Shown here piece by piece: positions 38,668 through 40,541 of a DNA stretch of 44,907 bases. The notes under the pieces are model-generated. The model saw nothing but the letters and a program-made list of their open reading frames with translations, did no database searches and was not told where the DNA came from. Location of the stretch: positions 1-44,907 of IMG/VR virus record IMGVR_UViG_3300036846_000760; one strand, 5' to 3'. A program made the position numbers and the translations under genes. This DNA comes from a virus. How positions within the stretch are numbered: position 1 is the first letter of the stretch; every line of letters starts with the position of its first letter.

Positions 38668-39406
38668 GGTCTGGTGAGGTCAGGCGGGGTGCGGCATGGC
38701 TAGGCACGGCTCGGTTCGGCGGGGTCCGGCAAGGCGTGGTTCGGTGGGGCTAGGTTTGGTTGAGCATGGTTCGGTTAGGCGTGGTGCGGCATGGCAAGGC
38801 ACGGTTTGGTGTGGTTCGGCGCGGTTAGGTCAGGTTTGGCACGGTTCGGCATGGTCTGGTCTGGTGTGGCATGGCTAGGTTCGGTTGGGTCGGGTTCGGT
38901 TAGGCACGGTGCGGCATGGCAGGGTCCGGTTCGGTTTGGTGGGGTTTGGCTAGGCGAGGTCGGGTTGGGTTTGGCGTGGAGTGGTTAGGCATGGCACGGC
39001 AGGGTGCGGTCCGGTCTGGCATGGTCTGGCTTGGTGTGCTGGGGCAGGGTTGGGTGAGGTCAGGTGCGGCGTGGCGAGGCCCGGTTTGGCATCGTCTGGT
39101 CAGGCAGGGTTAGGCGCGGTCGAGCAAGGTTAGGTTCGGTAGGGCGTGGTTGGGTGCGGTTTGGTTCGGTTTGGTTCGGTATGGCACGGTCAGGTCCGGT
39201 GAGGCACGGTCGGGCACGGCGCGGTATGGCCGGGCGTGGTTTGGCGAGATGTGCTTGGTTTGGTGCGGCACGGTCGGGCACGGCGCGGTTTGGCAGGGCT
39301 TGGTCCGGTCGGGTGAGGTGTGGCGCGGTTCGGCGCGGTCTGGTTTGGCATGGTTAGGCACGGTTAGGTCTGGTTCGGTACGGCTTGGTTCGGCGAGGCT
39401 TGGCTT
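38668..39406 (+). repeat. degenerate GGYNN pentamer array 1 (148 units)
   Basis: From 38668 to 39406 the plus strand reads as 148 head-to-tail pentamers. Of these, 142 start with GG (exceptions AGCAT, GCTGG, CGTCT, AGCAA, GATGT and a 4-base GCTT), and position 3 is C or T in all but one (GGAGT). Positions 4-5 take nearly any value. One 1-base deletion at 39253 shifts the phase; nothing else does. The array begins 7 bases after the DUF2815 stop and ends 28 bases before the next start. It has stops in all forward frames and no ribosome-site-like AGGAG. Confidence 0.95.
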
Positions 39407-39434
39407 AGTTTTCAACAACAAGAGGGATAACAAA

Positions 39435-40058
39435 ATGAACAAGGCAGAAAAAGTAGTGTTGAGCGATCCCGGTAACGGCGGCAACGAAGCGATTTCGTTC
39501 TCGCAGCCATACACGGCGCACGTCACGGTGACCGGTGTCGCGGATTTCATTTTCCACGGCTGGGACCCGGAAGCGGTGGAGGAAAAAGGACGTGCCGCGA
39601 AAGGCAGCAAGGCAAAAAAAACCGACAACATCAATTCGTATATCTATCGCGACGAAAACAACATGTTGGCGATTCCCGGCGAATACTTGCGCATGTGCGT
39701 CTGTAACGCCGCGAAGTTTCGCCAAGACCCGCGATCTCCGCGCAAGTCTGCAATGGACTTGTACAAAGCTGGCATCGTTGTCTTGAACAAGTTCGGCAGC
39801 CTTGGCACGGAGGCGTGGGACTATCTCGACAAGCGGCGCGTCGTCGTACAGCGCAACGGGATCAATCGCACGCGGCCTGCAATGCGCGCAGGCTGGGTCG
39901 TCTCGTATGAGGTGATGTGTCTGTTACCCGAGTACATTCCGCCACATGATCTTCTGGATACAATTGGAGTTGCCGGTCGTCTTGTCGGGTTGGGAAATTT
40001 TCGACCGACCTACGGCAGATTTTCCGTGACGAGTTTTGCTGTTCAAGACGCGATTTAA
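39435..40058 (+). CDS. unknown protein flanked by two pentamer arrays, 207 aa
   Basis: ATG 39435 follows AGAGGG; the longer frame to 39150 is array sequence. The 207-residue product is globular: AHVTVTGVADFIFHGWDPEA (about 30-49), a Lys-rich loop (RAAKGSKAKKTDN), NSYIYRDENNMLAIPGEYLR (about 68-87) and a C-terminal GLGNFRPTYGRFSVTSF (about 185-201). The last motif recurs in uncharacterised phage proteins I can recall, but I cannot name a family. Base composition of this gene is lower in GC than its neighbours. Its location between two like arrays suggests it is functionally linked to them or carried by them. Confidence 0.7.
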   Translation: MNKAEKVVLSDPGNGGNEAISFSQPYTAHVTVTGVADFIFHGWDPEAVEEKGRAAKGSKAKKTDNINSYIYRDENNMLAIPGEYLRMCVCNAAKFRQDPRSPRKSAMDLYKAGIVVLNKFGSLGTEAWDYLDKRRVVVQRNGINRTRPAMRAGWVVSYEVMCLLPEYIPPHDLLDTIGVAGRLVGLGNFRPTYGRFSVTSFAVQDAI

Positions 40059-40073
40059 CGAGACATCAAGCAA

Positions 40074-40493
40074 GGCTTGGTAGGGTCCGGCACGGCATGG
40101 CAAGGTCGGGTCAGGCGTGGTGAGGTATGGCATGGTTCGGCATGCTCGGGCGAGGTGCGGTCGGGTAGGGTTTGGTAAGGCCCGGCGTGGTGCGGCGATG
40201 TGTGGCGCGGCAGGGCATGGCAGGGCGAGGTCGGGTATGGTCCGGTCTGGTTTGGTCGGGTAGGGCAAGGCATGGTTTGGCGAGGTTTGCTGCGGTCGGT
40301 TCGGGCGCGGCATGGCACGGCCCGGCTTGGTTTGGTTTGGTCCGGTGTGGCAAGGCGCGGTTGGGCATGGCGTGGTTGGGCGTGGTGAGGTCGGGCATGG
40401 CTTGGCAAGATCGGGTGCGGCGTGGTCGGGTCTGGCGGGGCATGGCAAGGTCGGGCATGGCAAGGTCGGGCGAGCTATGGCGAGGTTTGGTTT
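40074..40493 (+). repeat. degenerate GGYNN pentamer array 2 (84 units)
   Basis: Exactly 84 pentamers (420 bp) run in a single phase from GGCTT at 40074 to GGTTT at 40489-40493. Of these, 78 start with GG; the six exceptions (GCTCG, TGTGT, GCTGC, GTTCG, GATCG, GCTAT) keep position 3 as T. Position 3 is C or T in all 84. There is no insertion or deletion. It starts 16 bases after the unknown gene's stop and ends just before a small hairpin (TTTCAC/GTGAAA, 40493-40510). Its orientation is the same as array 1. Confidence 0.95.
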
Positions 40494-40541
40494 TTCACAG
40501 CGTGGTGAAAGTTAAAAATCCAGAAAATTTTTGAGGCGAAA

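What the first reader, a model, noticed from the sequence alone, without database searches (positions are those of the whole stretch)
38668..40493. Two long arrays of a degenerate pentamer, GGYNN, not matching any repeat class I know
Seen directly: 148 units (38668-39406) and 84 units (40074-40493) of five bases, oriented alike, with GG in 220 of 232, a pyrimidine at position 3 in all but one, and almost free positions 4-5. The interval is not a simple tandem repeat, as neighbouring units rarely match, nor a CRISPR, REP or minisatellite. Maintaining a 5-bp GG phase over 740 and 420 bp while letting the rest drift implies a constraint acting on DNA or RNA shape. This is the strongest candidate for a new element in the window.
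Basis: seen in the sequence. Interest (0 to 1): 0.97.

Follow-up and report, generated by a model that had tools for sequence, protein, structure and literature searches.

The report
Phage VIPR guide-RNA arrays beside vipr gene
The two five-base repeat arrays are guide-RNA arrays of VIPR, an RNA-guided weapon that phages use against each other and that was first described in 2026; at least one guide in this phage spells out, through the gapped VIPR code, the matching weapon gene of rival phages.

Summary
They are not a new class. The small gene between them (39435-40058) is a Vipr protein. A profile of its family matches the solved SUSP1 Vipr chain (E 7.8e-39), and its model has the RAMP/Csm3 fold. 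This is a VIPR system (Viral Interference Programmable Repeat; preprint PMC13142463), in which Vipr binds vrRNAs of GGY/NN repeats and the NN pairs read DNA with one skipped base. I tested that code. With a 1-nt skip, the last 11 units of array 1 match the conserved KK(T/S)D(N/D)(I/V)ESYVY stretch of rival phages' vipr genes at 20-21 of 22 bases. An exact 22/22 site occurs once in IMG/VR, inside another phage's vipr gene. The window's own vipr matches 16/22; shuffled arrays reach at most 20, other skip rules 16-17. Arrays flank vipr in 92 of 105 loci chosen by the protein alone. What is unusual is the architecture: uninterrupted runs of 148 and 84 units instead of 9-16 units plus tail. How these yield mature guides is unresolved, and the preprint mentions 'staggered arrays' that may cover them. 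New member of a known kind.

The parts
38668..39406 (+). GGYNN array 1, 148 units: vrRNA-coding array of a VIPR system
   Evidence: Unit decomposition; same array type abuts vipr genes in 80 of 112 array loci and 92 of 105 vipr loci
39352..39406 (+). Last 11 units of array 1: inferred guide against vipr genes of rival phages (NN = TA AC TA CT TC AC TT TC GA TT TT)
   Evidence: 21/22 in L232 and L154, 20/22 in L147; exact 22/22 once in IMG/VR inside a vipr gene, L234:3376-3407; own vipr 16/22; 400 unit shuffles reach at most 20
39435..40058 (+). vipr gene, 207 aa, phrog_4652, RAMP fold with glycine-rich loop (AGRLVGLGNFRPTYGRF)
   Evidence: Profile A1 vs PDB 36pp_D 'SUSP1 Vipr protein' E 7.8e-39; model pLDDT 90.9; Csm3/type VII Cas7 fold Z 12-13
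40074..40493 (+). GGYNN array 2, 84 units: second vrRNA-coding array
   Evidence: Unit decomposition; starts 15 bp after the vipr stop codon
40439..40493 (+). Last 11 units of array 2: tentative guide, best match 19/22 to the portal-gene start of related phages
   Evidence: not confirmed by collection-wide scans
40493..40510 (+). Possible short hairpin (TTTCAC...GTGAAA) right after array 2, candidate vrRNA tail
   Evidence: Seen directly in the sequence; no statistical or comparative support sought

Best explanation
The arrays encode the guide RNAs (vrRNAs) of a phage VIPR system, and the gene between them encodes the Vipr protein. By the published mechanism, Vipr subunits assemble along the RNA, hold each GGY, and present the NN pairs. 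The NN pairs base-pair with double-stranded DNA while one target base is skipped per unit, which represses the target gene. Shown here: the Vipr protein, the arrays, their constant association, and a guide at the 3' end of array 1 that decodes to the vipr gene of competing phages but not to its own. Inferred: transcription, RNP assembly, and repression of rivals' VIPR during co-infection or superinfection.
For: Vipr homology by profile (E 7.8e-39) and RAMP fold (Foldseek E about 1e-7; Z 12-13). The array consensus is identical to the published GGY/NN repeats. Array and vipr are linked in both search directions: 80 of 112 array loci have vipr, all on the same strand; 92 of 105 vipr loci have arrays within 2.5 kb, and only one array lies farther away. 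The 1-nt skip code finds a target and the other skip rules do not: 22/22 against 16-17; 400 shuffles reach at most 20. The unique exact match in IMG/VR lies in a vipr gene that is 58% identical to the window's and has its own array. The skipped base falls on the codon wobble position, as reported for SUSP1. The own vipr gene has 6 mismatches at that site.
Against: The arrays are 148 and 84 units long without the 9-16-unit guide plus tail layout described for type II. No internal tail was found. Most units (about 200 of 232) have no identified target. No neighbouring gene recognisable as a vap was found. No expression data exist for this uncultivated phage.
Confidence: 0.94

Rival explanations
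1. Each long array is one very long guide (148 or 84 units) that reads a contiguous 250-440 bp target.
For: GG phase is kept along the full length with almost no slips, and GG integrity is uniform from end to end in 41 long arrays.
Against: The vipr-target match in array 1 stops after 11 units and falls to chance upstream. Decoded full-length peptides have no relatives in PHROGs or in the phage collection by tblastn.
Confidence: 0.06
2. The arrays are assembly or recombination sites for the neighbouring exonuclease and ssDNA-annealing protein, not guide RNAs.
For: Array 1 directly follows a Gp2.5/Enc34-type ssDNA-binding gene and a DUF2800 exonuclease gene.
Against: Homologues of these two genes were found near vipr in only 2 loci of the relative set, one of them the window itself, whereas vipr itself is constant. 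The gapped-code target match is unexplained.
Confidence: 0.02
3. The repeats are a drifting microsatellite without function.
For: Short period; some local duplications.
Against: GG is kept in 95% of units while NN is saturated.
Confidence: 0.01

Closest known systems
VIPR systems (Viral Interference Programmable Repeat; Escherichia phage SUSP1 and Pseudomonas fulva prophage, type II; PMC13142463)
   Same: Homologous Vipr RAMP protein; GGY/NN pentamer repeats in intergenic arrays next to vipr on the same strand; phage-encoded; 1-nt skip decoding finds targets with skips at wobble positions; a guide against another VIPR system, as reported for the P. fulva clade.
   Different: Uninterrupted arrays of 148 and 84 units instead of 9-16 units plus a tail; no vap recognised; Vipr only distantly related by sequence. 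[quoted passage not shown] S18) could not be checked.
Csm3 / Cas7-type RAMP subunits of class 1 CRISPR effectors (types III-A, VII)
   Same: Same fold over nearly the whole protein (Z 12-13), glycine-rich loop, inferred RNA-backbone binding.
   Different: About 10-15% sequence identity; no CRISPR repeats or spacers, no other cas genes in the window among the proteins scanned; 5-nt instead of 6-nt period.
VIPR of Gordonia phage UmaThurman (gp39 and the array annotated as gene 40) and phage DSL-LC04
   Same: vipr gene with abutting GGYNN array; UmaThurman gp39 matches the Vipr profile at E 1.9e-51.
   Different: Cultured temperate phage with an array of other sequence; not recognised in its annotation.

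Membership tests
VIPR | Vipr protein: small single-RRM RAMP homologue with G-loop | tested here: met
   PDB 36pp_D SUSP1 Vipr E 7.8e-39 with profile A1; RAMP fold; 207 aa
VIPR | vrRNA region of alternating GGY and hypervariable NN, period 5 | tested here: met
   220 of 232 GG, 231 of 232 Y, NN saturated
VIPR | vrRNA arrays flank the vipr gene in the same locus | tested here: met
   Gaps of 28 bp and 15 bp in the window; 92 of 105 relatives
VIPR | Carried mainly by phages | tested here: met
   IMG/VR virus record; terminase, portal and major head proteins present
VIPR | Target recognition by NN pairs with a 1-nt skip | tested here: met
   By sequence only: 22/22 exact target, unique in IMG/VR, only under skip 1. 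Binding itself is not testable here
VIPR | vrRNA of 9-16 units with a conserved 3' tail (type II architecture) | tested here: inconclusive
   Arrays are continuous (148, 84) without a repeated internal tail; the one matched guide is 11 units at the 3' end. Other VIPR types have other architectures according to the preprint
VIPR | vap accessory gene (typical, not universal) | tested here: inconclusive
   No neighbour recognised as a vap; downstream gene 40542-42161 matches no family
VIPR | vrRNA expressed and co-purifying with Vipr | not testable with these tools
   Needs RNA sequencing and pull-down
CRISPR-Cas class 1 | Array of identical direct repeats with unique spacers | tested here: not met
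   No conserved repeat of CRISPR length
Tandem microsatellite/minisatellite | Head-to-tail copies similar to their neighbours | tested here: not met
   NN identity between units at short lags near chance level; only weak TRF fragments

The most novel reading that the evidence does not exclude
Long uninterrupted vrRNA arrays (80-300 units without tails) are a distinct VIPR architecture in which overlapping or sliding segments of one transcript serve as guides, giving a dense, tail-less guide store, with guides aimed at rivals' own vipr genes at a conserved motif that the carrier has altered in its own copy.
Probability: 0.35. Interest if true: 0.7.

Novelty: new member of a known kind. Interest (0 to 1): 0.55.

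Why it matters
VIPR is, by its authors' account, the only described RNA-guided system with a gapped pairing code, and is proposed as an ancestor of CRISPR. This window adds an independent, sequence-only confirmation of the 1-nt skip code outside the two clades on which it was worked out, and a clear natural case of VIPR aimed at VIPR, with the own gene changed at the targeted motif. It also shows that very long tail-less arrays occur repeatedly, which leaves open how guides are cut from them. The cultured phage UmaThurman, which carries a related array, makes that question testable.

Tried and rejected
Recombination-site or annealing-protein footprint (suggested by the neighbouring exonuclease and ssDNA-binding genes): neighbours not conserved. 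One long guide: decoded peptides match nothing. Known RNA families or hammerhead ribozymes in the window and seven related loci: no Rfam match. Target search among the first 120 array loci only: database too small, no signal over out-of-phase controls. Array 2 target: portal-gene match of 19/22 at its 3' end looked promising, but a 20-base exact scan found nothing, and a relaxed scan gave 14 sites, none in a portal gene and apparently chance. Inverted repeats of 20 nt or more inside the arrays: none. Promoter-like sites no more frequent than in shuffles; terminator-like sites 9 against 5.0 expected, not pursued. First genome-contig scan with the single protein found nothing; the alignment query found 24 prophage or genome loci. 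Literature: only one VIPR paper found in the library; its supplement could not be read.

Full report
Observation. The window holds two arrays of five-base units, GGYNN, at 38668-39406 (148 units, one 4-nt step at 39253) and 40074-40493 (84 units, no slips). Shuffled versions never gave a GGY run longer than 5, against 42 in the real sequence. Nothing similar exists elsewhere in the window.

Spread. Most of the arrays show the same pattern: GG fixed, pyrimidine third, positions 4-5 variable. A few of the 120 are simple pentamer repeats (for example L109, L116, L117) and were left out of the later target tests.

Partner gene. Of the genes around the window's arrays, only one recurs: the 207-aa gene at 39435-40058 (phrog_4652, unknown function). 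A profile built from these loci finds it in 80 of 112 array loci, always on the strand of the array, usually within a few bases. In the reverse direction, relatives of this protein were fetched without regard to arrays: 92 of 105 have an array within 2.5 kb, 2 arrays are on the opposite strand, and one array lies elsewhere (the 105 include the window). Homologues of the exonuclease and ssDNA-binding genes next to array 1 were found near vipr in only 2 loci of that set, one of them the window.

Identity. The family profile matches PDB chain 36pp_D, 'SUSP1 Vipr protein', at E 7.8e-39, and no other solved chain at a meaningful level. The predicted structure (pLDDT 90.9) has the RAMP fold of Csm3 and type VII Cas7 subunits (Foldseek E about 1e-7; Z 12-13), with the conserved glycine-rich loop AGRLVGLGNFRPTYGRF. 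The preprint PMC13142463 describes VIPR: a Vipr RAMP protein plus vrRNAs made of GGY/NN repeats, phage-encoded, recognising dsDNA through NN pairs with one skipped target base per unit, and repressing competing phages.

Test of the code. I decoded the NN pairs and compared them with 2.6-3.6 Mb of held phage DNA under skip rules 0 to 3. Under the 1-nt skip rule only, the last 11 units of array 1 match vipr genes of other phages in antisense: 21 of 22 bases in L232 and L154, 20 of 22 in L147. The matched stretch codes for the conserved motif KK(T/S)D(N/D)(I/V)ESYVY, with the skipped base at the wobble position. The exact 22-base gapped pattern occurs once in all of IMG/VR, at L234:3376-3407, inside a vipr gene that is 58% identical to the window's and sits next to its own array. 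A different 26-nt pattern with about 17.5 specified bases gave 14 apparently chance sites, so about 0.03 chance hits are expected for 22 bases. Unit-order shuffles of array 1 against 105 vipr genes reach 20 in 2 of 400 and never more; other skip rules and reversed unit order reach 16-17 (the 22/22 gene, L234, was itself found by the pattern, but the 21/22 genes were not, and 21 also exceeds every shuffle). The window's own vipr gene matches this guide at only 16 of 22, so the system appears to avoid itself. A second, independent array (L176, units 3-14) matches other vipr genes at a different site, so VIPR-against-VIPR targeting may be common in this clade.

Array 2. Its last 11 units match the start of the portal gene in relatives that share the window's terminase family, best 19 of 22, in frame with wobble skips. 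This is suggestive because it again lies at the 3' end of the array, but shuffles reach 19 in 1 of 70, and collection-wide scans did not support a portal target. I treat it as tentative.

How it works. Shown: protein identity and fold, arrays, their linkage, and one decoded guide with a unique natural target. Taken from the preprint: vrRNA expression, RNP formation, dsDNA binding, transcriptional repression. Inferred for this phage: array transcripts load Vipr, and the array 1 terminal guide silences the vipr gene of rivals, thereby disarming their VIPR.

What is unusual. The characterised SUSP1 and P. fulva vrRNAs have 9-16 units and a structured tail. One relative here, L010, shows a similar layout: guides of 9-14 units separated by a conserved insert of about 33 nt. 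The window and some close relatives (for example L021) instead have runs of 84-148 units without internal tails. GG integrity is uniform along 41 long arrays, so the whole length seems to be under constraint. Full-length decoded peptides match no known protein, which argues against one giant guide.

Verdict. Real, very probably functional, and already explained in kind: a new member of VIPR with an interesting array architecture and an exceptionally clear natural target.

Noticed in passing
window 38668-39406 and 40074-40493: The pyrimidine at position 3 is coupled to position 4: C before purines, T before pyrimidines (odds 11-14). Shuffling it among units makes the predicted RNA fold more stable (z +5.1 and +2.4), so the choice appears to keep the array RNA unstructured; seen also in L057, not in most GC-rich arrays.
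   Followed up: partly
L330 (Gordonia phage UmaThurman NC_031249, 32723-33685): gp39, annotated hypothetical, is a Vipr (E 1.9e-51), and the annotated gene 40 is a GGYNN array wrongly called as a protein gene. This is a cultured temperate phage with VIPR.
   Followed up: partly
L129 4001-4618 (phage DSL-LC04): A vipr gene is annotated as a helix-turn-helix transcriptional regulator; it has a degenerate GGYNN array of about 52 units upstream.
   Followed up: no
L010 637-1197 (- strand): Guides of 9-14 units are separated by a conserved insert GGGCCTGCRAGGAATGGYTACGCCTCGTGC in four copies, probably the vrRNA tail of that system.
   Followed up: no
L107 4334-5152 (- strand): Two segments that interrupt its array resemble the 3' end of its own vipr gene (CTGATCGGC...GACATATG), as if vipr-end plus array had been duplicated.
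   Followed up: no
L176 3119-3625 (+ strand): Units 3-14 of this 101-unit array decode to another conserved vipr site in L157, L167, L055, L194 and L190, so guides can also lie near the 5' end of a long array.
   Followed up: partly
window 39150-40058 (+ strand): An open reading frame starting at a TTG inside array 1 runs into vipr; automatic gene callers may extend vipr into the array.
   Followed up: no
L139 9834-9918 and L149 2198-2232: Another 1-nt-skip match of 23/24 bases between an array and a different contig outside vipr, a candidate natural target in Phycisphaerales MAGs.
   Followed up: no
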